The position numbers were made by a program, and so were the translations under genes. 64,000 nucleotides of DNA from positions 1 through 64,000 of the forward strand of contig WRFH01000005.1 in NCBI GenBank assembly GCA_009778915.1, read 5' to 3'. This stretch comes from Elusimicrobiota bacterium. GTDB lineage: Bacteria; Elusimicrobiota; Elusimicrobia; Elusimicrobiales; Elusimicrobiaceae. The first letter of the stretch is position 1, and the number at the start of each line of letters is the position of its first letter. Under the pieces are notes generated by a model. The model was not told the origin of the DNA. It searched no databases and was given only the letters and a program-made list of their open reading frames with translations. Below are positions 1 to 45,646 of the stretch, piece by piece.

Positions 1-3000
1 ACCTGCGGATGTCCATCGGACCATATAAAAGGTACAGACGGAGTAACGTGCGTGTGTCCTGCGGATAAACCGAATGACCTAAACGGCATATGCTCAGTGT
101 GTACGACGGCAACGCCGTTCCCGTCGAATAACGACGGTACGAAATGCTGCGCGAATCCGAATATGTACTGGTACGCGAGCGCCAACCCGCTTTTGGGGAT
201 AACAGCTGGCTGCAACGTATGTCAATCGGGCCAGTTCCCGGCGCAGAATAATTCTACGCAATGCTGCTCGGCGCAGAATATGTACTGGGACGGAACAAAA
301 TGCGTGACGTGCACCGCTAACGGTGTTGTTGGGCTGACTTCATTATTAAATACGAGCGTGTGGGATGCCGGCACTTTGACATGCAAATGCGCTACAGGCG
401 AGGTAACAGTTACAGGCGGCTGCTGCGCTTCGTCTAACCCTAATTTATCAAACGGCCATTGCTGTCCGCCGACGGCGCCGAACTGGGACACAGCGTTGAA
501 TGCGTGTTCGTCAGGGTGCACAGCGCCGAAAACACAATTTAACCCGACGACATTAAAATGCGAATGTCCTACGGGAGAATTTGAAGCTGCGAATAATAGC
601 GACCAGTGCTGTCCGAATAACGGAGATAACTGGAGCACTGCGACAAACGGTTGCGTAACGTGTCCGACGACAAAACCGTGGGACAACACGGCAGGGAAGT
701 GCCAGTGTCCGAGCGGCCAACAAGACGCGATAGGGGACGCCAGCGGCCAGAACTGCTGTCCTACGGATACACCTAACTGGAACACAACGACAAAGACATG
801 CCAGCAGTGTCCTACGGGGCAGTCACAGTCATTAAACGATACAACACAATGCTGCGCTTCTACAACGCCATACTGGAACGGCTCCGGGTGCGTGGCGTGC
901 AGCGGCATTGATCCGTCAGGGAATGTCGCGGGAACGCCGAGTGTATGGAATAACACTTCTAAACAGTGCGTGTGCTCAGGTACAAACGTTTTAGTAAACG
1001 GCAACGCGAACTGCTGCCCTTCAGGGTTGAGTTATTCGAACGGCCACTGCTGCCCGTCAACGACGCCGACGTGGGACACGGCGAGCGGCACATGTTCGGC
1101 TTCGTGCACGCCGCCTCAGACATGGGACGGGAACACCTGCGTATGTCCTTCAAGCACGCCGAACTGGTGGAATAACACCTGCAACTTCTGCGCCTCCAGC
1201 GCAAGACCTTATAAAGCTTTAAACAGCACAGAGTGTTGTATCGACGCGAATAATTACTTAGTAAGCGGCAGCGGAGCGAGCACTACTTGTTGCCCGTTAT
1301 CAACCGATAATTGGAGCAGCGCCACCGGCTGCGTTACCTGCTTTGCGCCTTTGGTCTGGAACGGGAGTAAATGCGCGTGCCCGTCGTCGGCTCCATATCC
1401 GGCCAGCAATAACGCCGCGCAATGCTGCTCTTCAACCAATATGTATTGGAACGGTTCCGCGTGCCAGGCTATTATATGTACGCCTAACAGCACAACATCA
1501 TGCGGAAACTGCGGTACGGAGACATGCAACAGCAGTGGTACCGCTTGGGGCTCTTGTACAGGCCAGGGAACATGCTCTCCGGGTTCAACGACTTCATCTT
1601 CATGCGGGTACTGCGGTACTCAGACAGCGACTTGTACCAGCAGCTGCCAGTGGGGTTCATATGGTTCTTGCACTGGGCAGGGCTCATGCTCTCCGGGTTC
1701 GACGACTTCGTCTTCATGCGGGTACTGCGGTACTCAGACAGCCACCTGCAGCAGCAGCTGCCAGTGGGGTTCATATGGTTCTTGTAACGGCCAGGGCTCA
1801 TGTTCTCCAGGCGCAACGCAAGCTTGCCCCTCTGGATATAATGGAAACCAGAACTGTACCAGCAGTTGCCAGTGGAGCACTTCAGGATGTACTGCCCAGG
1901 TGTGTACGCCTAACAGCACGTCGTCATGCGGAAACTGTGGTACTATGACATGTAACAGCACCGGTACCGCGTGGGGTTCTTGTAACGGGCAGGGCTCATG
2001 CTCTCCGGGTTCAACAACGTCGTCTTCATGCGGAAACTGCGGCACGCAGACAGCGACCTGTACCAGCAGCTGCACGTGGGGTGCATATGGTTCTTGTAAC
2101 GGCTCAGGGCCGTGCTACTCTGGCCAAACGAATTCACAGACTTGCGGTAGCCCTTATACGGGAGGCACGCAGAAACAGACTTGTACCTCTTCTTGCCAGT
2201 GGGGCGGTTGGGACTACAGCGGGTGTATATCGTGCTCTAACGTCAACCCGGGTTCTTTTAATACCAGCGGGACCGCAACCGGAGTTTCGATTCCTTCCGG
2301 ATGCTCTTGTAATAGCCCCGGTGTCAGTTTATCCGGTTATTGCTGCCCATCTGGTACGAGTTATATATCTGGCAGTACTTGCTATAAATGTCCGTCAGGC
2401 CAGTCATTGTATAACGGAATATGCTGTACAACCGGACAGAATTCGCCTGACGGTGTACACTGTTGTGCGTCCGGCTACAGCTATTATTGGAATAGTGCTT
2501 GCCAGCAGTGTCCCAACAGCACATGTCCTTATCCGTCAAGTAACGGCAGCTACTACTATTGTTGTCAGGCTTCAGGTTATACCAGCAGCCTGTCCAGTTC
2601 ATGTTCTACAACATGCACAGCGCCGTGTGCCTCAGGAAAGTATTCCTCTAACGGGACATGTTGTCCCTCAGGCGGGACTGTTGCCGCTACCGGCGGTAAT
2701 ACAAACTGGCAGTCCAACTGCTGTGCATCCAGCAGCGCCACGCTTTGGGTAAGCGGAACGAGTTGCATCCATTGCTCTACCAACTCTTCCTCTGATTCAT
2801 GTCAATGGTGGAACAACTTTACATGCATGAATACCTTTAGCAACGGTTCCTGCGTATGTCCGAGTGACCATCCTGTTGCGGTAGATAGTATGCATTGTTG
2901 CCCTAGCGGTTTGAAATGGGCTACTGGCAGCGGAACCCAACCGGGTTGCTGCCCGAATTCTACCGATACATATACAACATCCGGTACATGTCAAGCGGCG

Positions 3001-3207
3001 GCAGTAGCATGTTCCAATTCATCGGTCGGTGGAGGGTCAGGCACTACTGCAAGTGGACAGACTTTAAATGTTTCGTGTGTTAGCGCATATCCATATACAT
3101 CATACCCGAAATGTAGTTACTATGTTTATACGTGCAATAATGGTAATTGGTCTCTTACAACCAATAACTGTGCCACGGTAGATTTACAATGTTGTCAATA
3201 TCAGTAA
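1..3207 (+). CDS. Large cysteine-rich repeat surface/secreted protein, 5' end outside window
   Basis: The frame is open from the first base, so this is the C-terminal 1068 residues of a longer protein; the GTG at 52 is only the first possible start inside the window. The sequence is dominated by Cys, Ser, Thr, Gly, Asn and Trp, with a recurring module of the form CCP...W...C..C. From about 1475 to 2112 it changes to modules rich in SCGxCGTQT and CxWGxxGxC, partly exact 114-bp tandem repeats. I see no transmembrane segment or known enzyme motif in the visible part. The dense paired cysteines suggest an extracytoplasmic, disulfide-stabilised rod. Two small secreted proteins at 40545 and 44939 share the Cys-rich style. 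Function is not recognised. A hairpin follows the stop codon directly. Confidence 0.8.
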   Translation, partial: TCGCPSDHIKGTDGVTCVCPADKPNDLNGICSVCTTATPFPSNNDGTKCCANPNMYWYASANPLLGITAGCNVCQSGQFPAQNNSTQCCSAQNMYWDGTKCVTCTANGVVGLTSLLNTSVWDAGTLTCKCATGEVTVTGGCCASSNPNLSNGHCCPPTAPNWDTALNACSSGCTAPKTQFNPTTLKCECPTGEFEAANNSDQCCPNNGDNWSTATNGCVTCPTTKPWDNTAGKCQCPSGQQDAIGDASGQNCCPTDTPNWNTTTKTCQQCPTGQSQSLNDTTQCCASTTPYWNGSGCVACSGIDPSGNVAGTPSVWNNTSKQCVCSGTNVLVNGNANCCPSGLSYSNGHCCPSTTPTWDTASGTCSASCTPPQTWDGNTCVCPSSTPNWWNNTCNFCASSARPYKALNSTECCIDANNYLVSGSGASTTCCPLSTDNWSSATGCVTCFAPLVWNGSKCACPSSAPYPASNNAAQCCSSTNMYWNGSACQAIICTPNSTTSCGNCGTETCNSSGTAWGSCTGQGTCSPGSTTSSSCGYCGTQTATCTSSCQWGSYGSCTGQGSCSPGSTTSSSCGYCGTQTATCSSSCQWGSYGSCNGQGSCSPGATQACPSGYNGNQNCTSSCQWSTSGCTAQVCTPNSTSSCGNCGTMTCNSTGTAWGSCNGQGSCSPGSTTSSSCGNCGTQTATCTSSCTWGAYGSCNGSGPCYSGQTNSQTCGSPYTGGTQKQTCTSSCQWGGWDYSGCISCSNVNPGSFNTSGTATGVSIPSGCSCNSPGVSLSGYCCPSGTSYISGSTCYKCPSGQSLYNGICCTTGQNSPDGVHCCASGYSYYWNSACQQCPNSTCPYPSSNGSYYYCCQASGYTSSLSSSCSTTCTAPCASGKYSSNGTCCPSGGTVAATGGNTNWQSNCCASSSATLWVSGTSCIHCSTNSSSDSCQWWNNFTCMNTFSNGSCVCPSDHPVAVDSMHCCPSGLKWATGSGTQPGCCPNSTDTYTTSGTCQAAAVACSNSSVGGGSGTTASGQTLNVSCVSAYPYTSYPKCSYYVYTCNNGNWSLTTNNCATVDLQCCQYQ
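1573..2112 (+). repeat. 114-bp coding tandem repeats in the Cys-rich protein
   Basis: Two adjacent, nearly identical 114-bp units lie at 1573-1686 and 1687-1800, each encoding 38 residues beginning CSPGSTTSSSCG. A further diverged copy is at 1999-2112. A larger duplication is visible too: the CTPNST-to-GQG segment before the first unit (from about 1475) recurs from about 1900. The unit length is a multiple of three, so copy number can change without breaking the frame. Confidence 0.85.
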
Positions 3208-3210
3208 TTA

Positions 3211-3239
3211 AAAGGGCCCAGACTATGTCTGGGCCCTTT
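3211..3239 (+). terminator. Hairpin after the Cys-rich gene
   Basis: A perfect 13-bp stem (arms 3211-3223 and 3227-3239) with a 3-nt loop starts four bases after the stop codon. The downstream T-run is short, so it may terminate less efficiently than the others in the window or protect the mRNA end. Confidence 0.7.
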
Positions 3240-3332
3240 GGGTTCTAACATATAGGTCCAAAAGACCTCTGGATTAATTTTAGTTCGTTTCGTATACTAA
3301 GGAAGTAAGTATATTAGAAAGGAGATAGAATT

Positions 3333-4673
3333 ATGTCTAACAAGAAATTGCTGCTGACAGTAATGTGCACGGCATTACTGTGCATTACTTATGGTAATGT
3401 TTTTGCCCAACGCACCTATACATCCACGGAGAGAAAGGCCCCTCTAAGAGCGGATTCTGCGGCCCCTATGCAGATTACGTATGCTGGGGTATTAAATCAA
3501 GGGACTTCAGATGACTACCAAGGAAATAGTTTGTTTTTTAGTACCGCTCAAAATCCTTTTAATCTTCTTCTGACTGTTCAGGTTAATACGCCTGTAAACG
3601 TAAAATATTCTCTCTATACTTTTAAAAAGACATTTTCACAGGACGGCAAGAGAGGATACTTGCAAGGGATAAATGAATGCAATTTGAATACCGCTATTAC
3701 AACCCAGGCGCAAATTGATGCTAACCTTGATAAAATTTATGAGTTCCCCGCTGTAACAGAAAATACAAGCACAAGTAAATTTATGGCGTGGGACGGGAAT
3801 ACGGACCCTCAGTTTACCGGCCAAAAATATGCCGTCAGGGATTGTATATATGTGGCGGCTTATAATGCGGACACCGGCGCACTTATAGATACGCAGGGTG
3901 TATTAAATGCCGCGCTAAATTATCAGACTATCGGTGTCCCCGCTGTAGCATATAATATAGACCAACAAAAAGACAATAGCGGAAACATTACTAAAGAAAC
4001 GCTTTCCGCAAAAGTTTATGTGGCGTATCCCGACAGTTGGCCTATTAAAAAGCTTACGGCGCTTATAATGACAGAAGACTGCGGTTTTGGCGCGACACCG
4101 ATTACCGTGGTTAACCAGGGCGCGGACGCAATAGCGGCTAATATAAACAGCAGATTACCCGGCGATGTTGTCGCTCATATCACGCTGACAAACCCTAATG
4201 TTGCCGCAAATAATCCGGATATAAAAACATTTGACTGGAAAGATATAAAAACAGAGGACGGAAAAGATTTTGTTCCAGACTTAGTAAAAAATCCGCAGGG
4301 ATACCTGATGGCTATAATAGTAGATATGGATGACATGACGTTTACCGGCGTTAAAAATGGTTCTATAGCCCCTGGTGTTCCTTCTGTTCCGCCCGTGCCG
4401 AAAAGCTACACCGGGATTCAATCTGTCGACGCGAATAAAGATGTTAAAATATATCCAAACGGTCTCGGCGGGTTTAACATAGACTGCCCAAACGGTATAT
4501 GTGTCAATAACAGCAAGTATCGTGTTATTAACACCGGCGGACAAGTGGTAGGCGCCGGCAATGTAAACGGCAATAAAATAGAAACCGGGGCCCCGCTTAC
4601 CAAAGGGCAGCTTTACATAATCCAAGTGGACACCAGCAACGGCACGGTAACGCAGAAAGTTATAAAAAATTAA
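3333..4673 (+). CDS. Exported protein with T9SS-like C-terminal sorting domain
   Basis: A 446-residue protein with a clear signal peptide (MSNKKLLL..., hydrophobic core, cleavage near VFAQ) and a strong ribosome site (GAAAGGAGAT). Residues 30-350 match the lipoprotein encoded at 4942, sharing motifs such as YSLYT(F/Y)KKTF, KYAVRDC and DDMTFTG. The last ~80 residues are extra and look like a type A sorting domain of type IX secretion: KIYPNG near the start, GGQVV in the middle, LTKGQLYIIQV and a final QKVIKN. The resemblance to that family is from memory and needs a profile search. The function of the main domain is unknown. A hairpin terminator follows. Confidence 0.8.
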   Translation: MSNKKLLLTVMCTALLCITYGNVFAQRTYTSTERKAPLRADSAAPMQITYAGVLNQGTSDDYQGNSLFFSTAQNPFNLLLTVQVNTPVNVKYSLYTFKKTFSQDGKRGYLQGINECNLNTAITTQAQIDANLDKIYEFPAVTENTSTSKFMAWDGNTDPQFTGQKYAVRDCIYVAAYNADTGALIDTQGVLNAALNYQTIGVPAVAYNIDQQKDNSGNITKETLSAKVYVAYPDSWPIKKLTALIMTEDCGFGATPITVVNQGADAIAANINSRLPGDVVAHITLTNPNVAANNPDIKTFDWKDIKTEDGKDFVPDLVKNPQGYLMAIIVDMDDMTFTGVKNGSIAPGVPSVPPVPKSYTGIQSVDANKDVKIYPNGLGGFNIDCPNGICVNNSKYRVINTGGQVVGAGNVNGNKIETGAPLTKGQLYIIQVDTSNGTVTQKVIKN

Positions 4674-4730: not shown

Positions 4731-4737
4731 ATTTAAT

Positions 4738-4870
4738 TTTCTCCCCTTATAAGGGGAGTACCGCCGAAGGCGGGGAGGGGTTTTTAATCGGGGTCCCGGC
4801 TGCTTTATATTACTGTGGCTCAAAACCCTTCCCCCGCTTTGCGGGTACTTCCCTTAAAAAGGGAAGAAAA
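4738..4870. repeat. Dispersed palindromic repeat A, copy 1
   Basis: About 133 bp with two ends that are inverted copies of each other. Each end is itself built of two small hairpins (CTCCCCTTATAAGGGGAG and CCGCCGAAGGCGG on the left). The middle contains GCTTTATATTACTG, also seen in copy 2. Other copies are at 6030, 10678 and 45797. It has no coding capacity and looks like a MITE or REP-type element. Confidence 0.8.
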
Positions 4871-4941
4871 TTGATTTAGATGTCTTCTTTCCGCAATGGG
4901 CAGGGGAATAATTTTTATATAATTAGTTAGAGGATAAAATT

Positions 4942-6009
4942 ATGCCGAATAAAAAATTATTACAAGCCGCGCTTACTCTTGCCCTGTTATTGACTGGCTG
5001 CCATAACGCTTCGTCCGAAAAAACCCAACCCGCGCCGCCTCTGCAAATTACAAAAGCGTATATAATCCCGGTCACGGAAACTTTTGATAATTATCTCGGC
5101 AGGCATTTTTTATCTTTCGTAAAAATTCCGCACTACGACGGGCTGGCGCTTAAAGACGCTTACAGCATTAATCTGCAGATTGAAAATACTCCGCCGGCTG
5201 ACGCCAAATATTCGCTGTACACCTATAAAAAAACTTTCGCGCAGGGCGGCAAACGCAATTACATGCAGGGCATAAGAGAGTGTGACTCCATTACGCCGCT
5301 GGCGACGCAGGAAGATATTGATAAAAATTTAGATAAAATCTATGAAACGACATTGGTAACAGAAGGTTCGTTCCAGTCCTACGGCGCGCCCGCTCCGACA
5401 AAATATTTGAAATTTGAATGGGACGGCTCCACGAACCCTCAATTTACCGGCGGCCAAAAATATGCCGTCAGGGATTGTCTTGTCGCGGCAGTACACGACG
5501 AGGGCGGTAAACTTATATCAATGAAAGACCTCACCACCGCTGCAGAAGGCTACGCCGTCACCGCCGGCACAAGTTATACCGCCGGGGACAAAACAATTTC
5601 CGCTAAAATTTACACGGCATATGACAGACCGCCTAAAAAGATATGGGCATTTTTGATGGTTGAAAACTGCGGCATAGGCGCATTAACGTACGACGTGGTA
5701 AACCAGGGCGGCGCGGCCATAGCGGCGGACATAAACAGAAGGCTGCCCGGCGACGTGGCGGCTTATACTGAGCTTACCAACCCGTCTTTTGACACTAAGA
5801 ACAGTCTTATAAAAATTTACGAATGGAAAGATATTAAAGGTGTGGACGGTAAGGATTTCACGCCCGCGCCGGATAAACCGCAATACCGCATGGCTCTTAT
5901 TTTAGAAACCGACGATATGACGTTTACCGGCATCAAAGACGGTTATATCTACGACGGAGCTTACCAGGTTGTCCCGTCGCCGAAAAAAGTAAAAACGGCT
6001 AAAAAATAA
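4942..6009 (+). CDS. Lipoprotein paralogue of the preceding exported protein
   Basis: A 355-residue protein with a type II signal peptide: MPNKKLLQAALTLALL followed by lipobox LTGC, placing the acylated Cys at residue 20. The body is homologous along its length to residues ~80-350 of the protein at 3333-4673 (KTFAQGGKRNYMQGI, KYAVRDC, NQGG, DDMTFTGIKDG). It stops about where the sorting-like domain of the neighbour begins and has a short Lys-rich tail instead. The pair therefore differ in how they are attached to the cell. Upstream is repeat A copy 1 and downstream repeat A copy 2. No known enzymatic motif was recognised; the family role is unknown. Confidence 0.8.
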   Translation: MPNKKLLQAALTLALLLTGCHNASSEKTQPAPPLQITKAYIIPVTETFDNYLGRHFLSFVKIPHYDGLALKDAYSINLQIENTPPADAKYSLYTYKKTFAQGGKRNYMQGIRECDSITPLATQEDIDKNLDKIYETTLVTEGSFQSYGAPAPTKYLKFEWDGSTNPQFTGGQKYAVRDCLVAAVHDEGGKLISMKDLTTAAEGYAVTAGTSYTAGDKTISAKIYTAYDRPPKKIWAFLMVENCGIGALTYDVVNQGGAAIAADINRRLPGDVAAYTELTNPSFDTKNSLIKIYEWKDIKGVDGKDFTPAPDKPQYRMALILETDDMTFTGIKDGYIYDGAYQVVPSPKKVKTAKK

Positions 6010-6029
6010 AATTTCCGATGGCAATGCTA

Positions 6030-6163
6030 TTTTCTCCCCTTAAAAGGGGAGTACCGCCGAAGGCGGGGAGGGGTTTTGAACCGGGGGACAAGCTGCTTTA
6101 TATTACTGAGGATTAAAACCCATCCCCCGCTTCGCGGGTACTTCCCTTATAAAGGGAAGAAAA
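6030..6163. repeat. Dispersed palindromic repeat A, copy 2
   Basis: Very similar to copy 1 over its whole length: left end CTCCCCTTAAAAGGGGAG then CCGCCGAAGGCGG, middle with GCTTTATATTACTG, right end CCCCCGCTTCGCGGG then CTTCCCTTATAAAGGGAAG. It lies in the 3' flank of the lipoprotein gene. Confidence 0.8.
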
Positions 6164-6184
6164 TTATTTTGCCAAATAAATAAA

Positions 6185-11950: not shown

Positions 11951-13036
11951 ATGGCAGTAGGGTTAACCAGTCTTTTAAAGACCGTCGTGGACAACAAAGC
12001 CAGCGGTTTGCATTTGAGAAGCAATTCTTTCGCTTTCGTCCGTCTGAACACGCAGATTAAGCAGATTGAAGACAGTTTTATGTCCAACGACGACGTGCGC
12101 AAAATCGCCTACGCCTGCATGAGCGACAGGGAGAAAAAAATATTTGAGGAAAACGGCACCGTTGACTTTTCCATAGACGCCAAAGAGCATGGCCGTTTCC
12201 GTTTCAACGTTTACAGGCAGAGCGGCAAAATCTGCATTTCAATACGCCACATATCTCTCAAAATTCCGACGTTCCAGGAATTAAATCTGCCGGCAAAAGT
12301 GCTTGAGGAATTGAGCGAAAACAGACGCGGCTTAATCGTTGTCACAGGTATGACGGGCGCGGGCAAAAGCAGCACGCTGGCCTCTATGCTGGGCTTCATT
12401 AACCGCACGCGCCGCGGCCATATTCTGACTATCGAGGACCCTATTGAATTTATTCACGCCGAAGAGAAATGTCTTGTCAGCCAGCTGGCGATAGGGCTGG
12501 ACACTCACTCTTACGTCTCCGCGCTGCGCGCCGCCATGAGACAGGACCCCGACGTTATTATGATAGGCGAAATGAGAGACTCCGACGTTATCCGCTCCGC
12601 GATACTGGCGGCGGAAACCGGCCATTTAGTTTTTACGACGATGCATACGACTGACGCCGTGCAGACGCTCACCAGAATGATTGAGGCTTTCCCTTACGAA
12701 CAGCAGGGCCAGGTGCGTATGCAGCTGGCGGATTTGATAAAGGGTATTATCAGCCAGCGTCTTTTGCCGGACGTTAAAGGCGGCATGGTGCCGGCCGTTG
12801 AAGTCATGATAAACACGCCCCAGATTAAAAAACTGATTACCGAAGGCAAAATAAACGAGATACAGCGTAACATTTCCGGCGGCGAATATTACGGCATGAA
12901 AACTTTTGACCAGGCGCTTGTCGCTTTGTATAAAGAAGGCAAAATTACCGTCGAAGATATGATGGCGTATTCGACGAGCCCGGACACGACTATGCTTGCC
13001 GTCAAAGGCATAGGCGACGACAAAAAGGGCCTATGA
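11951..13036 (+). CDS. pilT: Type IV pilus retraction-type ATPase (PilT/PilU family)
   Basis: A 361-residue secretion ATPase. Walker A GMTGAGKSS is at about residue 130, the Asp box region IEDPIEF follows near 158, Walker B-like VIMIGEMRD is near 200 and the His box ETGHLVFTTMHT near 218. The C-terminal TPQIKKLITEGK corresponds to the PilT AIRNLIRE region. PilT-type hexamers depolymerise pili and drive twitching. Whether it is PilT or PilU cannot be told from sequence alone. It sits between ftsZ and cmk, and its stop overlaps the cmk start (ATGA). Confidence 0.9.
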   Translation: MAVGLTSLLKTVVDNKASGLHLRSNSFAFVRLNTQIKQIEDSFMSNDDVRKIAYACMSDREKKIFEENGTVDFSIDAKEHGRFRFNVYRQSGKICISIRHISLKIPTFQELNLPAKVLEELSENRRGLIVVTGMTGAGKSSTLASMLGFINRTRRGHILTIEDPIEFIHAEEKCLVSQLAIGLDTHSYVSALRAAMRQDPDVIMIGEMRDSDVIRSAILAAETGHLVFTTMHTTDAVQTLTRMIEAFPYEQQGQVRMQLADLIKGIISQRLLPDVKGGMVPAVEVMINTPQIKKLITEGKINEIQRNISGGEYYGMKTFDQALVALYKEGKITVEDMMAYSTSPDTTMLAVKGIGDDKKGL

Positions 13037-15804: not shown

Positions 15805-18800
15805 ATGATTAAAAAATATTTTCCATTTTTTAAACAGACGGTCGCCCTGGGTATAATAACGATTTTACTTTTTGATTCTAATACCGCGGCGCTGGCCCAG
15901 ACTGTATCTAACCAACAGCTGGTAGACAAAAAAACGGAAGACCTTAATAATTCCTATAACAACGTGTTGGTGAGAGACAGAGTTAACAAAGAGATAACGC
16001 GGTACAATGCGGTGGTTCCGTCGGTTTTTCGCGTCAGAAGCAGCGGCTACAACAATTACGGCGCGGTAGGCGATGAGATTGCAAAGAGAAAATTCCTGGA
16101 GGAAATCAAATATAAAAAACAGCTGGAGTCAGATGATATTTTTAAGAGAGCCGAAGAAATTAAATTTATTATTTTGGGCAAAGACAACAAAACGCCGGAC
16201 CAGGAAAACAAACCTTATACTCTTGAAGAATTTACCAAAGAACGCGTCAACCAGCTTAACGCCTACCAGAAAAATTTTTTTGCAAAAGCCGATGACTTTT
16301 ATCAAAAAGAATCAATAAGACTTAATAACACGGCAACGCAGTTAAGTTATGGCGAATACCCGCCGCAGCAGATAGCCGCCTGGAAAGAGACTAATGAAAA
16401 TAAACTGAAACAGTCCGTAGAAGACGCCAAAGCCGAATTTTTGCGCAGCAAGGCCGCCGAACTTGCTAAAACGAATTTAAGATATAAAGAGTATCTTGGC
16501 CAGGTTGACCGGGAAAAACAGCAGCATATAGCGGAAGTTTACGATACACTTGAATCCTTAACCCAGGAACTTATGGGTATGTACAAAAAAAATCCGGAAA
16601 AACTATTGTCCTACGTCGCCGAGCTTTCCCCGCTGCTTCTTATAATAAGCGGCAACCACAAAGAACTCAAATCGCTTTTTACCCCGGAACAGAAAAAGGA
16701 TTTACTGTTTCTGTATACGTCAATTTTGAACGTCCCGTCCAAAGATTGCGAGAAACTTTCAAAATGCGATATAGAAGTCAACGCGCTTTCCGGTATAGGC
16801 ATATTAGGGGAAAGCGAGCAGGACGCTCATCTCATAGGGCGGTTTATAGAAGAGCACGAGCATAACGGCGATTATACAAGAATACTAATTACCGGCGTAA
16901 GCGCGCTTCTTAGTTTGAAACAGTACGGAGTGATTAACAGTTATATTATAGGCGCCTCAGGGCGCGAGAATAATTCTAATGATTTTGATATGTTCAATTT
17001 TTCACAAATGGCAGAGGCTTATAATACCAGAGACGGAAAATATCTTGGAGAGGTAAGCAAATACGCGCAGTACCAGGAAAACCCCAACTTTTTCACAATG
17101 GACAATGCTTGGACGGACGTGGCCCGTCTTCTCGCGGAAGAAGGCAGCCAAGGCAGTCTTGACATTTTAAAAGAGCACGGCGTTGACAAATGCGAAGTAT
17201 TTGAAGACACGCAGATTAACGGACAAAAAGATTTTCATCTTGGATGCGGCGATATAATATTGCCGTTTCTCACGGGCGCGTTATTGTCCGGTAAAAGCGG
17301 CGTAGGGAATTACAATCCCGGAACATATATGTCTGCCGGTCCATATATTACAAAAGCGGGCACAATTTATATTACAGAGCAGGCAGCGGCGAAGAACCGC
17401 GCGAATTCCGCGGCGGCGGCGCGGATACTTGCCGCGCTTGCCAAACAAAAAGGGGTGAGCCCGGACGCGCTTTTTGCCCTTTATATAATTGACCAGAACA
17501 TGGGCGATTTGCCGTACCGCGAAGAATATAATCTGGATAACGGTCTTTACAAAAAATTCGGAAGCCAGCTGGACAAAAATTTAAATAAATTCGCGCTTGT
17601 AGACAATAATCCCTCAGCCGCCCAGACCAAAGAAAGCCGCATACAAACGGCCAAAATAGTAAATATCGTCGGACAAACCGCCGACGTGGCGTTTATCGCC
17701 TGGTGTTTTTGGGACTTGTCAAAGCTTGCCACGAAGGGCGTAAAGGGAATAAGCAGACTCTGGTCAAGAGTTTTTCGCGGCATAGAACTGGCCCGCGCCG
17801 GCAGCGCGGTTGAAAAAATTGCGTTTTTGAGGACAAATTTGTCCGTATATCAAAAGACTTTTGCCGGGCGCAAAGATTTATCCGTATTGGCAAAAGTGAA
17901 CGAGCGTATTTTTAAAGCGATGGAACCGACGGTGCTGGAACAGGGGCGCTACTATTTTACGGATATAGCGAAATCCGCGCGCCCGAAGGGAGCTGAAGAG
18001 AAAGCCGTGGAGGCCGTTCTCTCCAACACTGTTTTTGACGCCCAAAAAGGAGCTTTTGTAACTGACAATAAGGCCGCTTACGCGGCGCTTCAGGGATTTG
18101 AGGGCCACGGCAAAGTTTTACAGGAAACCAAGATAACCTTAGATAACGCGGCTAAAAACGCCGCCGGGAAATTCGACAAATACAGCCTGCCCGTAAAATC
18201 CAAAAGACCTGTTGTAGGCAAGATTATAAATAAAGCTGGAAGTTTATATAATGATGAGCTAGGCAGGCAGCTTTTGGCAAGAGAAACCGAAAAAGCGTTC
18301 GCCAATTCCTCTTACTTTAATACCTTCAGCAAAGCAATAGGCCGTGCTTACGGTAATACGCTGTCCGCAATCGAAGAGGTTCCGTTTATCATGGATATGA
18401 AAAGCGGAAAGTACGGCGAGGAACTTGTAAAAACGCCGCACGCCGCCGGAGAGACGCGCAACTTGTCGCTTTTTGCCCAGGGAAAAGAAGGCGCACCGGA
18501 AAGAAGAGTGGGCAACGTGGAAATGTCTCTTGACGAGCCTATCCCAGGCGTAACGTCGGGCTTTTGGCACAAAGGTATTTTCAAATTTTTTCAAAATTCT
18601 GATTTTATAGAAGGCCGCGCCGCCGCGAAAAGACAAAAAATTTCCAGCGTTATTTTAGAACAGAAAAACGCGGCAAGCGGCAAGAAAGTTCTGCGTTTTG
18701 TCGGTTCAGACAATACCGGCATTGACGCCAATCTCTTTAAAATAACCGTTGATAAAGAGAGCGTTCCTTCACTTTTAAGGGCGGCGGAAGAATATGCCGA

Positions 18801-20925
18801 TAACAGGAAACTCACCGGGAAGGCCGAAAAACTTCTGGAATTAAAGCTTACCGCCGATTATAAACCTGAAAACTACGGTATTTTCTCAAAAGTAAAAGAC
18901 TTTTTTAGAAATAAAGAAGCTGCTTTTAAAGAAACCATTCCGGCAGTGATAACGAGCGAAAAAGGCGAAACAGCCTTTACTGGAGTAAAATTAAGAGTTA
19001 ACAAAGAGCTTGAAGGGTTTAAACTTGTCGTTAACGGCGCGGACAACGGCGTCACGCTTGTCAAACCCGGCGGCGGCGCTTTTGAAGGTAAATTTAATGT
19101 TCTTCTGCCAAAGATGGAGATTAAAAAATTTACCAAAATAGCCGATTCCGCGGGGTTTTTGGACAGAGACATACATCTCGGTTTAACCGGCAGCAAAAAT
19201 AAGATTAATTCGCTTTTTGTAATTTCCGGCTTAAGTTTAAGCGCTGCCTCAACAAGTTTAATCAAGCCGCTTAATACAAATTATCCGGAAGCGTCGTATA
19301 AATCCAAATTCGCGATAACCGTTATTATGCCTTACGCGATGTCGCTGCTTTCTCCCGCAATAGCGCCGTTTGTAAAGCGATACGGGCTGGTAAAAGTTTT
19401 GCAGGGAAGTCTTATTGTCGCGGCGGGCGCGCTGGTAATACCTAGTGTTACGGGTTTTTATGGTTTTGGCGGCATCACTCCGGAACATAAACCAAGCCTT
19501 TTCCCGTTGGTCGCGGGGGCGCTGCTGGTAGGCGCGTCTACCGCCATGACGCGCGCCACGCTTACGCCTTTGACGGATGCTATCGGCGGCGGCGGCAATA
19601 CGCTTAAATCCGTGGGTTTTAAAAATCTGAGTTCGTTTTTGATGCTTCTCCCGCCGGCGGCGGCAAACGGCGTTGCATACGCTTTCGGCGCGAAGAATGA
19701 AGATATGATTTATAAAACGCCGGACGGGACCGAACAACATTTCAGAAAAAAACCGACGGATTTTTCTTTCGCGTATCCGGTTTTATTAGGCGCTTCGCTC
19801 GGCACTTTGGCAATGTTGAGAGGCGCTAAAATAAGTTCTTTGATAGGCAGAGGGGAAGAGTATCTCAAAATGCCTCCCGGGCCTCTTTGGAAAGAAACAG
19901 CGAATGTTATAATGAGAAAAAGGGACCCTATGCCTTTTTTAAAAGAAATCGGCTCTTCTTTTGCCACTATAAAAAATAAAGACGTGTTGCCGGTTATAGG
20001 CGCGTCCACGTTGATAGTCGGCTCCGAAGCCGCGCTTGTAAACAGTTACAGCATGAGCGAAGTAAACAGATATGTTATCGGCAAATATAAAAAATCCGGC
20101 GAAGGCCCGTGGGCTGAAGACGGCAGGGGTTTATACTCGGTAGCGATATATACCGCCGCGCCGTTTATCTTCAGGATGTATTCCGGTAAAGTATTGGAAC
20201 TTATGGGCGGCAAAGAAAATCCGCTTGCTTATAAAAGGCTTTTAACGGCCAGCCTCGGCACTGCGGCCGTGGGAACGGGTATATTGTATACGCAGCATGA
20301 CATGCCGTCGTTTTTAACCGGAATGGCGCTTACGTCGGTAGGTTTTGCCAGCACTACAAACGGTTTCTTTAAACTCGGCCAGCTTAATTTAAAAGCGGCT
20401 GGCGCGGCAAAAACTTTCTTAACCAGCTATGAAGTTCTTTACCCGGGTGTGCATATAGGCATGGCGGTTGTTCCCGCGCTTATGACTACCGCGTCCGATA
20501 TTAATAAAAATAAATACCCCGACAGCAAACAATATCTTGGACTGCAGGAGTCTTTGTGGGTTCCCGCGCTCGGCGTAGCCGCGGGTACTATTATAGGCAG
20601 CAAGGTTATAGGTTTGGACAGCAAAATTTTTAGTTCAAAACTTTTCCAGTATCCGGCGGCTATAACAGCCGGCACATTCGGATTTATACGTAAAACCCGC
20701 GCCGGCAGTTTTGGGGTAGGCGGAAATGCGCTTTACAAGGATTTGACAAAACCCGAAGAGGATGATAATAAATCTGAAGCCGCTGAAAAAAGCCAGGACC
20801 CGGAAAATGTTTTTACAAATAATTCCGCTGATGCTTATAAACAAATAAAATCTCACAGCAAAAGACCGAAGCTTACTTTTAATGAAACACCGTTGGAAGA
20901 CTCTAAATTAAGCAATTCACAGTAG
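15805..20925 (+). CDS. Giant exported protein with C-terminal major-facilitator-like domain
   Basis: A 1706-residue protein with a signal sequence (hydrophobic core VALGIITILLFDS, possible cleavage after ALAQ at residue ~32). Residues 33-260 are charged and helical; 270-600 contain helical segments with no recognised motif. A hydrophobic stretch lies near 615-635 (VGQTADVAFIAWCFWDLS), a soluble region extends to ~1125, then 12 predicted membrane segments from ~1131 to ~1645, arranged like an MFS transporter, and a charged tail ends the protein. An MFS domain fused to more than 1000 exported residues is unusual. It is alone between two terminator-bounded regions; SD AAGGACA precedes the ATG. 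Function unknown. Confidence 0.75.
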   Translation: MIKKYFPFFKQTVALGIITILLFDSNTAALAQTVSNQQLVDKKTEDLNNSYNNVLVRDRVNKEITRYNAVVPSVFRVRSSGYNNYGAVGDEIAKRKFLEEIKYKKQLESDDIFKRAEEIKFIILGKDNKTPDQENKPYTLEEFTKERVNQLNAYQKNFFAKADDFYQKESIRLNNTATQLSYGEYPPQQIAAWKETNENKLKQSVEDAKAEFLRSKAAELAKTNLRYKEYLGQVDREKQQHIAEVYDTLESLTQELMGMYKKNPEKLLSYVAELSPLLLIISGNHKELKSLFTPEQKKDLLFLYTSILNVPSKDCEKLSKCDIEVNALSGIGILGESEQDAHLIGRFIEEHEHNGDYTRILITGVSALLSLKQYGVINSYIIGASGRENNSNDFDMFNFSQMAEAYNTRDGKYLGEVSKYAQYQENPNFFTMDNAWTDVARLLAEEGSQGSLDILKEHGVDKCEVFEDTQINGQKDFHLGCGDIILPFLTGALLSGKSGVGNYNPGTYMSAGPYITKAGTIYITEQAAAKNRANSAAAARILAALAKQKGVSPDALFALYIIDQNMGDLPYREEYNLDNGLYKKFGSQLDKNLNKFALVDNNPSAAQTKESRIQTAKIVNIVGQTADVAFIAWCFWDLSKLATKGVKGISRLWSRVFRGIELARAGSAVEKIAFLRTNLSVYQKTFAGRKDLSVLAKVNERIFKAMEPTVLEQGRYYFTDIAKSARPKGAEEKAVEAVLSNTVFDAQKGAFVTDNKAAYAALQGFEGHGKVLQETKITLDNAAKNAAGKFDKYSLPVKSKRPVVGKIINKAGSLYNDELGRQLLARETEKAFANSSYFNTFSKAIGRAYGNTLSAIEEVPFIMDMKSGKYGEELVKTPHAAGETRNLSLFAQGKEGAPERRVGNVEMSLDEPIPGVTSGFWHKGIFKFFQNSDFIEGRAAAKRQKISSVILEQKNAASGKKVLRFVGSDNTGIDANLFKITVDKESVPSLLRAAEEYADNRKLTGKAEKLLELKLTADYKPENYGIFSKVKDFFRNKEAAFKETIPAVITSEKGETAFTGVKLRVNKELEGFKLVVNGADNGVTLVKPGGGAFEGKFNVLLPKMEIKKFTKIADSAGFLDRDIHLGLTGSKNKINSLFVISGLSLSAASTSLIKPLNTNYPEASYKSKFAITVIMPYAMSLLSPAIAPFVKRYGLVKVLQGSLIVAAGALVIPSVTGFYGFGGITPEHKPSLFPLVAGALLVGASTAMTRATLTPLTDAIGGGGNTLKSVGFKNLSSFLMLLPPAAANGVAYAFGAKNEDMIYKTPDGTEQHFRKKPTDFSFAYPVLLGASLGTLAMLRGAKISSLIGRGEEYLKMPPGPLWKETANVIMRKRDPMPFLKEIGSSFATIKNKDVLPVIGASTLIVGSEAALVNSYSMSEVNRYVIGKYKKSGEGPWAEDGRGLYSVAIYTAAPFIFRMYSGKVLELMGGKENPLAYKRLLTASLGTAAVGTGILYTQHDMPSFLTGMALTSVGFASTTNGFFKLGQLNLKAAGAAKTFLTSYEVLYPGVHIGMAVVPALMTTASDINKNKYPDSKQYLGLQESLWVPALGVAAGTIIGSKVIGLDSKIFSSKLFQYPAAITAGTFGFIRKTRAGSFGVGGNALYKDLTKPEEDDNKSEAAEKSQDPENVFTNNSADAYKQIKSHSKRPKLTFNETPLEDSKLSNSQ

Positions 20926-28639: not shown

Positions 28640-28683
28640 AAAAACCACTCTACTATATTTATTGTTAATTGTGCAAGATTATT

Positions 28684-28907
28684 AAGACTCCGTCCTCAAA
28701 TTTTTTTCCTCTCCCCACCGGGGGAGAGGACACAGGTGAGGGGGTAGTTAAACAACATGCGCCGTAAGTCTTAAAATCTGTTCAAGGCCCCGCATGCCGG
28801 GGCCGATAAGGTGAAAAACCTAAGTTGATGAACAACAATATATTGTGTACATGATGTGTACACACCCCCTCACCCTATCCCTCTCCCCCGGAGGGGCGAG
28901 GGGAAAG
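28684..28907. repeat. Dispersed repeat B, copy 2
   Basis: About 224 bp starting AAGACTCCGTCCTC. The left end has CCTCTCCCCACCGGGGGAGAGG and GGTGAGGGGG, the right end CCCCCTCACC and CCTCTCCCCCGGAGGGG: imperfect terminal inverted repeats, each holding a palindrome. The middle has CGCCGTAAGTCTT, CCGGGGCCGATAAGG and GTGTACATGATGTGTACAC, all shared with copy 3. The flanking bases to the pilin start (28908-29095) show nothing further I can name. Confidence 0.85.
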
Positions 28908-31040: not shown

Positions 31041-31565
31041 TTAGTTAAGCGCGAGGCATTGGGTGGCATTCCAGCCGCAGTTTACCGTCGGCGGATTAGT
31101 TTGTTTTGCGCCGAGGGACTGGCATAAAGCCAGACCTTCGGTATTGGTATTACTTGCGACACAGAATATTTTCCTATCTCTGTCTTTCTGATAACTTATA
31201 TAAACAGTTGACACTGTACCCGAAGAATACGCGGTAACATAATTTGCATACGCCCCCGAACCCATTAAAATAAACCAGTCTTTTGATACGGTTATTTTGG
31301 CGTAACTGTCATTATATCCCGGATAGCGTGATTCCTCAGCCGGAACCTGTATGTCCAAATCACTGAAATTTACAGGATAATCGCCGGTCTCCAAAAAATA
31401 TCTTTCCCTGCTGTCGGCGATATTTCGTACAAGGATAAGCGCCTGCATGGCGCGGGATTTTTTGACGGCTTTATTATACTGCGGCACCGCTATGGCGGCC
31501 AATATGCCTATTATCAGGACGACGATTAATAATTCTATTAACGTAAATCCTTTTTCCTTAAACAT
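31041..31565 (-). CDS. Type IV pilin-like prepilin
   Basis: A 174-residue prepilin: leader MFKEKG, cleavage before FTLIEL, then [30 protein letters not shown]. The C-terminal domain is unlike those of the other two pilins in the window except for a late pair of Cys ([10 protein letters not shown]). It is single, with its own terminator. No Shine-Dalgarno sequence is seen; a TAAAAT hexamer ends five bases before the ATG, so the mRNA may be leaderless. Same assembly possibilities as for the pilin at 29096. Confidence 0.9.
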
Positions 31566-38104: not shown

Positions 38105-38590
38105 TTATTTGAGCATAGGGTTAATTGTATTGCATATAGTAATATCTGCGCCGCCTACACATGTTCTAGGATTATCTGATGAGAAACCGCCTTTATCTAA
38201 CGAGTAATTAATCTGATAAGCGCATAGGTAAATACCATGCACAGGATCAAAAGGTTGAGGAGGAGGCACTCTACAAGCGAAAATTAGGCATTTATCACCC
38301 GCGCATGTGCCAGTCATATAATAAAAATTTTTGCTTGCTGACACGTCTATATCCAAACTGTCTGAACCGCCTGGGGCACCGATGTTAATGCTGAGGCCGT
38401 CGTAAGAACCGTTAAGCAGATAGTATCTCTGCGCGGCGTCTGTTATAGCTTTTAAGTTAAGCAAAGCTTCGGCTGCACGTGATTTTTCTACCGTTTTGGT
38501 ATACTGCGGCAATGCGATTGCGGCCAGTATGCCGATTATTAGAACTACTACGAGTAATTCTATTAATGTGAAACCTTTACTGTTTTCCAT
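38105..38590 (-). CDS. Type IV pilin-like prepilin
   Basis: A 161-residue prepilin: leader MENSKG, then [36 protein letters not shown]. The globular part has four late Cys (CAGDKCLIFAC, TCVGGADITIC). SD AGGAGGACG precedes the ATG. Like the other two pilins it is a single gene between unrelated operons with its own terminator. The N-terminal ~40 residues are nearly the same in all three, the rest is not. Confidence 0.92.
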   Translation of the reverse strand: MENSKGFTLIELLVVVLIIGILAAIALPQYTKTVEKSRAAEALLNLKAITDAAQRYYLLNGSYDGLSINIGAPGGSDSLDIDVSASKNFYYMTGTCAGDKCLIFACRVPPPQPFDPVHGIYLCAYQINYSLDKGGFSSDNPRTCVGGADITICNTINPMLK

Positions 38591-40544: not shown

Positions 40545-41222
40545 TTACTGCTGTACGCATGTATACGTTATTCCGCACGTGAAGTTAATTCCGTTACCGG
40601 ACTGATTGTTTTGTACATCAGTTCTTCCGTTCCAGCTGGTCGCGCAGCAGCCGCTTGCGTAGGTAATCCCGTCCGCCAGCAGTACCGGGTACGCGCTTTG
40701 GTTTTCGCAATAACCGGTGGTGTTGAGGTTGCAGCTTGAAGTAGCGATAGAAGTCGGACACGGATTACTTGGCGAGGCATTGGGATAAAGATTTAAGCCG
40801 TTGTTCGCAACGCCGCCGTTCTTGCAGTTTACCATAGCGTAACTCATCTGCCATACATAGCTGGGCGTCGGCGTTATGCCGCCTCCGCCGACAGGGGCAG
40901 ATCCGCAGCATTTGCCGCTCGGGATATCTTCCTGATAGTCAGCCAGTTTGCTCTGTGTTCCTAAACACAGACACGGAGTAAGACAAGTTTTTCTGGCTTT
41001 TACCCATGTTTTAGTGATATCTGAGCAGCATCTGGAATCGTTATCATTGCCGTAGCCGCCCCAGTTATTTGCGCAGCAGTCGGAAACGATATTGACGCCT
41101 GAACCGGGGGTTGCTTGATTACACCTGCACTCGGCATAACTGCCGTAAGGGTAAGTTATGCCGGTTCCGGCGGCGGCAAACAGAACGGCCGCGAACACAA
41201 AAATTTTTATTATTTTTTTCAC
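40545..41222 (-). CDS. Small cysteine-rich secreted protein
   Basis: A 225-residue exported protein starting with GTG behind a strong AGGAGG. Signal peptide MKKIIKIFVFAAVLFAAAG, then a Cys-rich mature part with about 20 Cys. It shares with the protein at 44939 an N-terminal block (ECRCNQATPGSGVN / HCRCNQASPGLGSN) and a middle block (TPCLCLGTQ(S/T)K.ADYQED.P.G.CC), while the C-terminal thirds differ. The style recalls the large protein at 1-3207 (CCATSWNG, CCANNWGG). Disulfide-rich surface or extracellular role is likely; function unknown. An ~80-bp upstream region is nearly identical to that of the gene at 44939. Confidence 0.8.
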   Translation of the reverse strand: MKKIIKIFVFAAVLFAAAGTGITYPYGSYAECRCNQATPGSGVNIVSDCCANNWGGYGNDNDSRCCSDITKTWVKARKTCLTPCLCLGTQSKLADYQEDIPSGKCCGSAPVGGGGITPTPSYVWQMSYAMVNCKNGGVANNGLNLYPNASPSNPCPTSIATSSCNLNTTGYCENQSAYPVLLADGITYASGCCATSWNGRTDVQNNQSGNGINFTCGITYTCVQQ

Positions 41223-41243
41223 AAAAAAGCCTCCTTAATAATC

Positions 41244-41287
41244 TTGGAATTACACTTATATTTTAACCCGGAAAAAGCGTAATCCAA
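41244..41287 (-). promoter_or_regulatory. Shared inverted-repeat promoter element, copy 1
   Basis: Arms TTGGAATTACACTT (41244-41257) and AAGCGTAATCCAA (41275-41287), read on the plus strand, flank a 17-bp spacer. On the coding (minus) strand the first arm overlaps a possible -35 (TTGGAT) and the spacer holds TAAAAT 16 bp later. The surrounding ~80 bp (41229-41308) match those at 45655-45731. Confidence 0.65.
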
Positions 41288-41357
41288 AATAACTAAAAAG
41301 GCTATGTTAGTCTCAGACGTGAAATTTTTTACGAAAATTAGGATTGCTTAAAAATGA

Positions 41358-41400
41358 AAACATAAAAAAGGCCGCCTTTCGGGCGGCTTTTTTTATGTTT
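41358..41400 (-). terminator. Terminator of the lpxK operon
   Basis: A long, almost perfect palindrome (AACATAAAAAA...GGCCGCC / GGCGGC...TTTTTTATGTT) with a TTTCG-type loop. The minus-strand T-run makes it an intrinsic terminator for the membrane protein gene ending at 41399. Confidence 0.85.
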
Positions 41401-42436
41401 AATTTTGTGGAGGGGGCGGTTCAAGCTGTACTACATTGCGCGTGTCAGGCTGTTGCGGGGTTTGGTCCGCCTGAGCGGCGCGGGCAGCGTCCGCCACGGG
41501 ACCTATGCCGTCGCCTTTCACGGCTTCGCGGTTGAGGTAATACATTACCAGCGGCACCTCTATATAACACTGCGGAGTCATTTGAATTACTAGGACAACC
41601 AGCGTCAACAGTACCATAACTATAATCCCCAGAAACGGAACCAAAGACGCCAGTATTGCAAGAATTATGCCTATAAAATAAACAATCCACTGGACGAACA
41701 TCGCGGCGATAACGAAAGCAAACATTACAAGCATTACCAGCAGGAAAAAGCCTATCGTCGGCCAATAGCCGCCGCGCACGAGGCGCCACGCGTATTTGAC
41801 GGCGTCCGTATAATTTTTGCCTTTAAGCGCCAAAACCTGCGGCAGAGGCAGAACTGTCATAAAAACAAACCATGCCGCTATTAAGGTGAAAAAAGCGGCA
41901 AGCATGCACAAAGCCCCCACAGCGGGCTGACTAGCCGTAAAAGCAAAAACGGCCCCGCCGCCGAAAACCAGCGGCACGGCGTAAATAATTAAAAATACGG
42001 CGAACAAAGTGAGAAAAAACGGCGTGACTCTGGCGTAAGTCTTTTTAAAACTTTCCCATATGCCGAGCGGCGTCCCCAAAAATTTACTTTCAAGATACGC
42101 GGACACCGCGGCTATTCTCCAGAAGGCGGCAGCTATAAGGAGAATCAAAGCGACTGCAAAAAAGAGCCACATATAAGGATCCCTGAGAATAATATTAAAT
42201 ACTTCTAAATCCATTTGCCGCGCGACTTCCGTCGGCAGGTTTTTTGGTACGGCGTTAAAAAGAGGAGCCTTTGTTAAGACAAAATATATCCAGAACGGCG
42301 CCGAGCATACTATAACCGCGGCGACATAAATAAGCTGGAACAATATAAGGTTTACTATATTTTTAAAGAATACGTTAAACGAATCGCCTACAATATCCGT
42401 CACTGCATAAAGTTTTTTAAATATTTGTGTTTGCAT
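41399..42436 (-). CDS. Multipass membrane protein of unknown function
   Basis: A 345-residue protein with about six to seven hydrophobic helices from residue ~25 to ~290 (for example LILFQLIYVAAVIVCSAPFW and a Val/Leu-rich last helix) and a cytoplasmic Pro/Gln-rich tail. It resembles the upstream gene product in general layout (helix distribution, DALKYAWR-like loop, proline-rich C-terminus ending PPPPQN). Proteins of this shape include the membrane domains annotated near glycerophosphodiester phosphodiesterases, but I do not see a catalytic motif. The start shares a base with the upstream stop (TAATG). Confidence 0.75.
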   Translation of the reverse strand: MQTQIFKKLYAVTDIVGDSFNVFFKNIVNLILFQLIYVAAVIVCSAPFWIYFVLTKAPLFNAVPKNLPTEVARQMDLEVFNIILRDPYMWLFFAVALILLIAAAFWRIAAVSAYLESKFLGTPLGIWESFKKTYARVTPFFLTLFAVFLIIYAVPLVFGGGAVFAFTASQPAVGALCMLAAFFTLIAAWFVFMTVLPLPQVLALKGKNYTDAVKYAWRLVRGGYWPTIGFFLLVMLVMFAFVIAAMFVQWIVYFIGIILAILASLVPFLGIIVMVLLTLVVLVIQMTPQCYIEVPLVMYYLNREAVKGDGIGPVADAARAAQADQTPQQPDTRNVVQLEPPPPQN

Positions 42437-44807: not shown

Positions 44808-44881
44808 AAAATACCTCAATAAAATATTTTACATAATTAGATATGAAAATTACAATGAAAAAATATAATATGAATATAAAT

Positions 44882-44913: not shown

Positions 44914-44938
44914 TCACTCTGTTTTATCTCTAAACAAC

Positions 44939-45646
44939 TTATGGCTGAGGGGTACAAATTAATCTAGCCAGCATTTGCCCGTTGCTGTTGCTTGTACAAT
45001 TTGGTTGAGTCCCGTTCCACGCCGCTGTACTGCCAGGCGGACAGCAAAGGCAGTTGCAAGACTGAAAGCCCCATACCCCGCCCGCGGATATGCATTGGTT
45101 ATAGGCCAGCTGGCTGGGGCAGGTACATGCGCCCCATGTACAATCAGAGCCGCACGTTTGAAACATATAACCTTGTAAATAACTGCCGTTGCCGCCTAAG
45201 TCCACGCCGGTGTAAGTCGTACCGCCGCACCATTGCGTAGCGCCGGCCGTACATGCCCCGGGACAACTCCCGCCGAGGGTGCCGCCGCCGACAGGTTTTG
45301 ACAGACAACATACCCCGCCCGGGGCGTCTTCCTGATAATCAGCCTGTTTGGTCTGTGTTCCCAGACACAGGCACGGCGTTTTACAGTAAGAAGTTGACCA
45401 ATTCGCGCTTCCTCCTGCCCACACTTTATTCACGCCGGCTACAAGGGAGCAACATATGTCTGGGTTACTATTTTGATACGAATTATTGCTACTATCGGAG
45501 CAGCAGGTGGAGGGTTGATTACTGCCAAGCCCTGGGGAGGCTTGGTTACACCGGCAATGCTCATAAGACGTGGCGGCAAATGTTACCATTGTTCCCGCAG
45601 CCAGAAACAAAAGCGACAGAGTTAAATTTATTGTTTTCTTTTTCAC
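44939..45646 (-). CDS. Small cysteine-rich secreted protein
   Basis: A 235-residue exported protein with a GTG start behind AGGAGA and a signal peptide (MKKKTINLTLSLLFLAAGTMVTFAA). It has about 24 Cys. The N-terminal (YEHCRCNQASPGLG) and middle (CKTPCLCLGTQTKQADYQED) blocks match the protein at 40545. The C-terminal third has CPGACTAGATQWCGG and CGSDCTWGACTCP, similar in style to the SCQWGxxGSC modules of the large protein at 1-3207. So it links the small and large Cys-rich proteins. Function unknown. Confidence 0.8.
   Translation of the reverse strand: MKKKTINLTLSLLFLAAGTMVTFAATSYEHCRCNQASPGLGSNQPSTCCSDSSNNSYQNSNPDICCSLVAGVNKVWAGGSANWSTSYCKTPCLCLGTQTKQADYQEDAPGGVCCLSKPVGGGTLGGSCPGACTAGATQWCGGTTYTGVDLGGNGSYLQGYMFQTCGSDCTWGACTCPSQLAYNQCISAGGVWGFQSCNCLCCPPGSTAAWNGTQPNCTSNSNGQMLARLICTPQP

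What the first reader, a model, noticed from the sequence alone, without database searches (positions are those of the whole stretch)
1..3207. Very large Cys-rich modular protein of unknown class
Seen: more than 1068 residues with repeated CCP...W...C modules and SCGxCGTQ / CxWGxxGxC modules. The density of paired Cys and Trp is extreme for a bacterial protein. Together with two small secreted relatives in the window it points to a lineage-specific disulfide-rich surface system.
Basis: partly seen in the sequence, partly recalled or inferred. Interest (0 to 1): 0.55.

Follow-up and report, generated by a model that had tools for sequence, protein, structure and literature searches.

The report
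Variable cysteine-rich pilus-linked surface protein
This is the tail end of a giant cysteine-rich surface protein from a small gut bacterium, built from the same mix-and-match modules that its relatives hang on hair-like pili, probably to grip changing targets.

Summary
Window 1-3207 is the 3' part of a gene cut by the contig start; it encodes at least 1068 residues, 13.1% Cys, with 11 CC..W..C modules and 5 SCGxCGT modules. Neither module matches Pfam, NCBIfam or PDB. "Lineage-specific" holds for the CC..W module only (4 of 90 family genomes). The SCG module also occurs in Myxococcota/"Deltaproteobacteria" proteins; within the sampled phylum it is confined to this family (apparently Elusimicrobiaceae), where it sits mostly on type IV pilin-like proteins.

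In this genome and its genus relatives, Cys-rich tails follow three carriers: type IV pilins, a secreted "YYPTPYA" head, and small secreted proteins. In one same-genus genome, heads are mostly 95-100% identical in DNA (dS 0.02-0.17), yet saturated against other species of the genus, while tails do not align. This suggests heads homogenised by recombination and tails free to vary.

Best reading: the window protein is a giant variable adhesin-like tail, carried by a secreted head or a pilin, a variant of the known "modular pilin" principle. Its own N-terminus is missing. Adhesion, display on pili and active tail-swapping are inferred, not shown.

The parts
1..3207 (+). 3' part of a giant Cys-rich modular gene, cut by the contig start (at least 1068 aa)
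   Evidence: open frame; window = contig C5 from base 1
1..1464 (+). CC..W..C module block (residues 1-488); closest to tails of head-type genes C5R, C4L and C9 of the same genome
1465..2295 (+). SCGxCGT module block (residues 489-765), 38- and 34-residue repeats; closest to Myxococcota/Deltaproteobacteria-type proteins
   Evidence: fold model
2296..2955 (+). second, more degenerate CC-rich block
   Evidence: two CC..W matches at residues 821 and 907; weak match to C5R tail, E 9e-5
2956..3207 (+). C-terminal stretch (from residue 986) without a relative found, ending CCQYQ
   Evidence: no hit among the fetched loci
3210..3240 (+). inverted repeat followed by few T, terminator-like, just after the stop
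   Evidence: read directly in the sequence; no terminator scan was run
40545..41222 (-). small secreted Cys-rich relative
44939..45646 (-). small secreted Cys-rich relative
11951..13036 (+). PilT/PilU-type pilus ATPase (context: type IV pilus machinery)
   Evidence: TIGR01420 419.8 bits, cut-off 319.1; PF00437
31041..31565 (-). ordinary-sized type IV pilin (context)
   Evidence: N_methyl, TIGR02532
38105..38590 (-). ordinary-sized type IV pilin (context)
   Evidence: N_methyl, TIGR02532

Best explanation
The window gene encodes the variable, disulfide-rich tail of a giant exported surface protein. Its missing N-terminus is most likely the secreted 'YYPTPYA' head (about 60% by my judgement) or a type IV pilin domain (about 35%). 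The tail is a string of small modules of about 30-40 residues, probably cross-linked by disulfides, that binds ligands outside the cell (host mucus, food polymers or other cells). The conserved carrier handles export and display (on pili, for pilin carriers) while the tail confers specificity. Within a genome the carrier sequence is kept uniform by recombination between copies, whereas tails diverge by tandem duplication, module shuffling and perhaps acquisition. Shown here: modules, carriers, head homogenisation, non-alignable tails, pilus ATPases, many prepilins. Inferred: disulfides, surface location, adhesion, any active tail exchange.
For: Same-genome relatives with signal peptide + head + Cys-rich tail, or prepilin + Cys-rich tail. 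Window CC-module flanks match the head-type tails best. G002 heads mostly 95-100% identical in DNA over about 480 bp while tails do not align; within-genome dS 0.018-0.168 for four of five heads, against 2.0 or more, or saturated, versus the other two genomes of the genus; sharp cassette edges; 123 shared bases, then different tails, at contig ends C5-right and C4-left. In this family 11 of 20 SCG-bearing frames (15 with an intact 5' end) have a prepilin-like leader. The same CPxxCPxGQ..EDGxCC module occurs on a pilin and a head-type gene of G002 and a small protein of G000 (read). 48 prepilin matches and three PF00437 ATPases in G000; PilT-type ATPase in the window.
Against: The window protein's own N-terminus is unseen and no partner contig was found. 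No binding domain is recognised, so adhesion has no direct evidence. CC-rich pilin tails exist too (G016, 1734 aa; G000 C7), so the carrier choice is uncertain. No tail was caught moving between heads. Heads of the C9 pair in G000 are less uniform (dS 0.405).
Confidence: 0.55

Rival explanations
1. It is itself a giant modular pilin: a prepilin N-terminus followed by more than 1000 residues of Cys-rich tail, displayed on or at the tip of a type IV pilus.
For: G016 has a 1734-aa prepilin with 17 CC pairs; G000 C7 has a 640-aa CC-rich prepilin frame; SCG modules in the family sit mostly on prepilins.
Against: Four of the five tailed pilins read in G000 have no CC pairs (C3 two, C1 two); window flanks match head-type tails best.
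Confidence: 0.35
2. A structural or protective coat: the Cys-rich strings form a cross-linked sheath rather than binding specific ligands.
For: Extreme Cys content; almost no Arg and few Lys, as might suit protease resistance (inference); near-identical tandem arrays in other tails.
Against: Tails differ completely between copies with the same head, which a structural coat would not need.
Confidence: 0.15
3. Protease-inhibitor strings: the SCG module works like a pacifastin-type inhibitor and shields the surface from gut proteases.
For: Pacifastin-type inhibitors among the weak structural rows (1wo9: 35 of 35 residues, rmsd 2.1, Z 2.0; 2xtt Z 2.6).
Against: Z below 3 is not meaningful by the tool's own note; no Pfam match; a reactive-site loop was not tested.
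Confidence: 0.06
4. Assembly artefact: the frame is a chimera of repeats from several genes.
For: The gene lies at a contig edge, and other family members also break contigs at shared sequence.
Against: 3.2 kb of uninterrupted frame with a stop and an inverted repeat after it; complete relatives of the same make-up in other genomes, including a single-contig one.
Confidence: 0.05

Closest known systems
Modular type IV pilins (S. sanguinis PilB/PilC and the InterPro survey in PMC8179133; passages read)
   Same: A conserved carrier presents grafted extra modules; prepilins with C-terminal Cys-rich modules exist in this genome and family.
   Different: The window protein's carrier is unseen. The modules have no database signature and are shared with non-pilin heads and small secreted proteins; the longest tail read is on a 1734-aa pilin, against an 860-residue extreme reported there.
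SCGxCGT-repeat proteins of Myxococcota/Deltaproteobacteria (e.g. L079, L084, L081)
   Same: Same 34/38-residue repeat; 49.6% identity over 254 residues for L079.
   Different: None of the 33 non-Elusimicrobial loci shows a prepilin motif in its module frame; many begin with lipoprotein-like leaders (my reading). No described function or family found.
PilV shufflon and other constant-head/variable-tail adhesins (recalled, no call)
   Same: Constant N-terminal part, interchangeable C-terminal parts, pilus link.
   Different: No recombinase or inverted tail cassettes were looked for systematically; the pattern seen (scattered full genes with homogenised heads) points to homologous recombination instead.
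Myxobacterial Cys-rich PilY1 tip proteins (PMC13190605, passages)
   Same: Large, Cys-enriched pilus-associated proteins; that paper suggests disulfide stabilisation of extended extracellular domains.
   Different: No PilY1 propeller match in 5 of 5 genomes searched, but the control genomes did not ring either, so this shows nothing firm.

Membership tests
Modular type IV pilin | N-terminal prepilin (class III) leader on the window protein | not testable with these tools
   5' end missing; no partner contig
Modular type IV pilin | Prepilin leader plus extra C-terminal modules on same-family relatives | tested here: met
   N_methyl over cut-off in L013, L046, L049, L015 and L144; Cys-rich tails read
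Modular type IV pilin | Pilus assembly/retraction machinery in the genome | tested here: met
   three PF00437 matches in G000; PilT-type ATPase
Head/tail family ('YYPTPYA' head) of the same genome | The head itself on the window protein | not testable with these tools
   5' end missing
Head/tail family ('YYPTPYA' head) of the same genome | Tail homologous to tails of head-type genes | tested here: met
   E 5e-11 to 2e-17 to C5R, 1e-13 to C4L, 2e-8 to a C9 gene
Thrombospondin type 1 repeat | Profile match to the SCG module | tested here: not met
   no such family in Pfam scans at E up to 10
Pacifastin-type inhibitor | Fold match | tested here: inconclusive
   Z 2.0-2.6, some rows full length
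TNF-receptor/growth-factor-receptor Cys-rich region | Fold match of the CC..W modules | tested here: inconclusive
   Foldseek rows only at E 3 or more; no VIA row with Z 2 or more
PilY1 | PF05567 propeller domain in the genome | tested here: inconclusive
   0 of 5 genomes, but 0 of 14 controls rang
PilV shufflon | Site-specific recombinase with inverted tail cassettes | not tested
   no systematic search made

The most novel reading that the evidence does not exclude
The Elusimicrobium lineage runs a genome-wide surface-variation system: a few carrier cassettes (type IV pilin, YYPTPYA head, small secreted 5' cassette), homogenised by recombination, carry an open-ended set of Cys-rich tails whose modules move between carriers and even between phyla, so that pilus and secreted adhesins diversify together. 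No such cross-carrier system turned up in my library searches; the 2009 E. minutum genome paper is not held.
Probability: 0.35. Interest if true: 0.75.

Novelty: new variant of a known kind. Interest (0 to 1): 0.56.

Why it matters
If right, it gives a little-cultured gut lineage with small genomes and 30-103 prepilin matches per genome (5 genomes) a concrete surface-diversification mechanism. It also adds two undescribed Cys-rich modules, one shared with Myxococcota-type lineages, and shows that the modular-pilin principle can exceed 1700 residues and share modules with non-pilin carriers. E. minutum is cultivated (recalled; also titled so in references seen), so the idea is directly testable.

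Tried and rejected
Rejected or led nowhere. (1) Thrombospondin-1-like identity of the SCG module, suspected from W/C spacing: no Pfam or PDB support; thrombospondin was not among the listed fold rows, which excludes nothing. (2) Horizontal transfer of the whole SCG block from Myxococcota: bit scores favour it (the top 20 loci are all non-Elusimicrobial), but tandem copy number inflates them. Per module, 50 of 60 nearest neighbours are non-Elusimicrobial against a base rate of 132 of 187 (193 of 211 module rows were long enough to be used), and composition shows no step at the block's edges. Left open. (3) Sigma-54 promoter upstream of the family: none of 19 upstream regions scored; the passage in PMC3162934 lists E. 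minutum among species without sigma-54. (4) Phage or plasmid carriage of the SCG block: no match in either collection (low-complexity filter on). (5) Partner contig for the missing 5' end: none. (6) Dropped rows: one search used 8 of 13 genes (Em4, C1 and G1b dropped because my end pattern missed them; C5R and C4L show only 40 head residues). A4 used 38 of the 81 two-module rows printed, plus one window stretch. (7) The C7 pilin scan was cut inside the leader, so its empty Pfam result means nothing; the leader is seen. (8) The prepilin calls rest on a pattern of my own; only the five named in the membership test were checked with Pfam.

Papers: PMC8809381, PMC3162934, PMC8179133 and PMC13190605 were seen as found passages only; others as search listings; Herlemann 2009 was not available.

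Full report
Observation. Window 1-3207 is one open frame of 1068 residues, open at its 5' end. The window begins at base 1 of contig C5 of its genome G000 (1.27 Mb, 66% complete), so the gene is cut by the assembly. It has 140 Cys, 31 Trp and 21 CC pairs. The order is a CC..W block (residues 1-488), an SCG block (489-765), a second weaker CC block, and a C-terminal stretch with no relative found among the fetched loci.

Which organism. One genome of G000's family (G285, locus L069) has the same module frame as a record titled Elusimicrobiaceae (L086): both give identical matches (titles). A same-genus genome, G002, is a single contig of 1,643,562 bp, which I recall as the size of Elusimicrobium minutum Pei191; that identification is recalled, not tested. 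Lineage of that species.

Known domains. The window protein has no Pfam or NCBIfam family (E up to 10). Profiles of the two modules find no convincing PDB sequence (best E 0.62 and 0.19). AlphaFold gives beta hairpins for an SCG pair (pLDDT 88.2, pTM 0.56, 39 rows) and short strands for a CC..W stretch (pLDDT 80.7, pTM 0.57, only 6 rows). Foldseek against PDB gives nothing below E 1.3 for the first and E 3.0 for the second. The weak rows are fibronectin I, sushi and pacifastin for the first, and mainly IGF1R, calcium-sensing-receptor and TNF-receptor chains for the second.

Relatives in the same genome. The window protein finds further Cys-rich genes on C5 (right end), C4 (left end), C9 and C3; reading around further matches adds C1 and C7. 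They fall into three carrier types. (i) A secreted head with a YYPTPYA or YFPTPYA motif: both C9 genes, C1:468236, and, by their visible ends, C5-right and C4-left. (ii) Prepilins with Cys-rich tails: two on C3, two on C1, one on C7 (N_methyl confirmed for L013 and L046). (iii) Small secreted proteins: two in the window and two on C1, sharing a conserved 5' region. Two C9 tails also contain a pilin-globular-like region without a pilin leader (Pilin_GH, E 2.4e-6 and 2.9e-4, both under the gathering score).

Constant carriers, variable tails. In G002 five head genes were compared pairwise. From the signal-peptidase region to the end of the head (about 480 bp) DNA identity is mostly 95-100% (some 60-bp windows 85-93%), then falls mostly to 30-60%. 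Upstream regions and, except in one pair, the signal peptides also differ, so the conserved cassette has two sharp edges. For four of these heads dS is 0.018-0.168, while against heads of the two other genomes of the genus dS is 2.0 or more, or not computable. Uniform within a genome but saturated between relatives is what gene conversion predicts. In G000 the C9 heads are less uniform (dS 0.405), and in G001 dS is 0.208. In G000 the contig ends C5-right and C4-left share exactly 123 bases, up to the end of the head, and then continue into different tails. This explains the contig breaks and is compatible with either two identical heads or one head with alternative tails.

Where the modules occur. 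The SCG profile matches 33 of 294 sampled genomes of the phylum, all 33 in this family (3 of 89 genera). Among 20 module-bearing frames from the loci of that call, the window excluded, 11 have a prepilin-like leader, 5 are cut at the 5' end, and 4 are not prepilins, including L073, which has a signal peptide and a head of the same general kind (aligned in A5). The CC..W profile matches only 4 of 90 family genomes, 26 times in G000. A scan of genome contigs with the SCG module gave 41 loci: 5 with Elusimicrobial titles, 3 titled only 'uncultured bacterium' with the same kind of protein, and 33 others, 27 of them titled Deltaproteobacteria or Myxococcota-type. None of the 33 shows a prepilin motif in its module frame, against 6 of the 8. 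The window's SCG block is closest to L079 (49.6% over 254 residues, E 2e-58), and the top 20 loci are all of that group. Per module the excess is modest, so I do not claim a recent transfer. The head profile matches 85 of 294 phylum genomes and is strongest in this family.

Pilus context. G000 has 48 prepilin matches; four relatives have 30 to 103. There are three PF00437 ATPases in G000, one of them a PilT/PilU-type protein inside the window at 11951-13036. A paper passage reports a Tad-like pilus region in E. minutum (PMC8809381).

Interpretation. The modular-pilin principle (a pilin carrying grafted functional modules, with PilB of S. sanguinis binding host proteins; PMC8179133, passages) explains the tailed prepilins. 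The window protein shares their module types, but its own carrier is missing. In favour of the head carrier: its CC-module flanks match the tails C5R, C4L and C9 best, and four of the five tailed pilins of G000 have no CC pairs. Against: CC-rich pilin tails exist in G016 (1734 aa) and on G000 C7. Adhesion is the most likely job because the tails are exported, modular and variable while the carriers are constant; that is inference. A structural coat and a protease-inhibitor role remain possible.

Novelty. I rate it a new variant of a known kind: known principle, new modules, unusual size, and modules shared by pilin and non-pilin carriers with homogenised heads. The literature searches named in the novel case found no description in the open library; the key 2009 genome paper was not held.

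Noticed in passing
window 3333-4673 (+): Secreted protein with a C-terminal stretch close to the type IX secretion sorting domain (TIGR04183, 22.7 bits against a cut-off of 23), unexpected to me in this phylum. The next gene (4942-6009) is a relative: 67% DNA identity over 372 bp.
   Followed up: no
window 4731-4876, 6029-6182, 45797-45952; 28676-28902 and 62789-63021: Interspersed repeats of about 150-230 bp, mostly 81-88% identical, mainly between genes and also on other contigs; a possible mobile or regulatory element family.
   Followed up: no
window 40545-45646; L047:1380-9051: The small Cys-rich genes flank an LpxK gene and two GPDPase_memb-like genes. In G002 three similarly placed genes (my reading, not tested) precede two head/tail genes: possibly a conserved site for Cys-rich surface genes.
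   Followed up: partly
window 38105-38590 and 31041-31565 (-): Pilins with matches to ComP_DUS, the DNA-uptake pilin family, just under and well under its cut-off (27.2 and 19.0 bits against 27.3).
   Followed up: no
window 15805-20925 (+): A 1706-residue protein with no Pfam family at E up to 0.001.
   Followed up: no
L108: A contig titled Klebsiella pneumoniae MAG carries an SCG-module protein of the Myxococcota-like kind; probably mis-binned or mislabelled.
   Followed up: no
L046:3664-6084 (-); L144:1869-3572 (+): Prepilins whose tails are near-identical tandem Cys-rich units: 18 CPxxxPxWxG-type matches in the 806-aa protein and 9 EDGxCC units in the 568-aa one. Such arrays should expand and contract readily.
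   Followed up: partly
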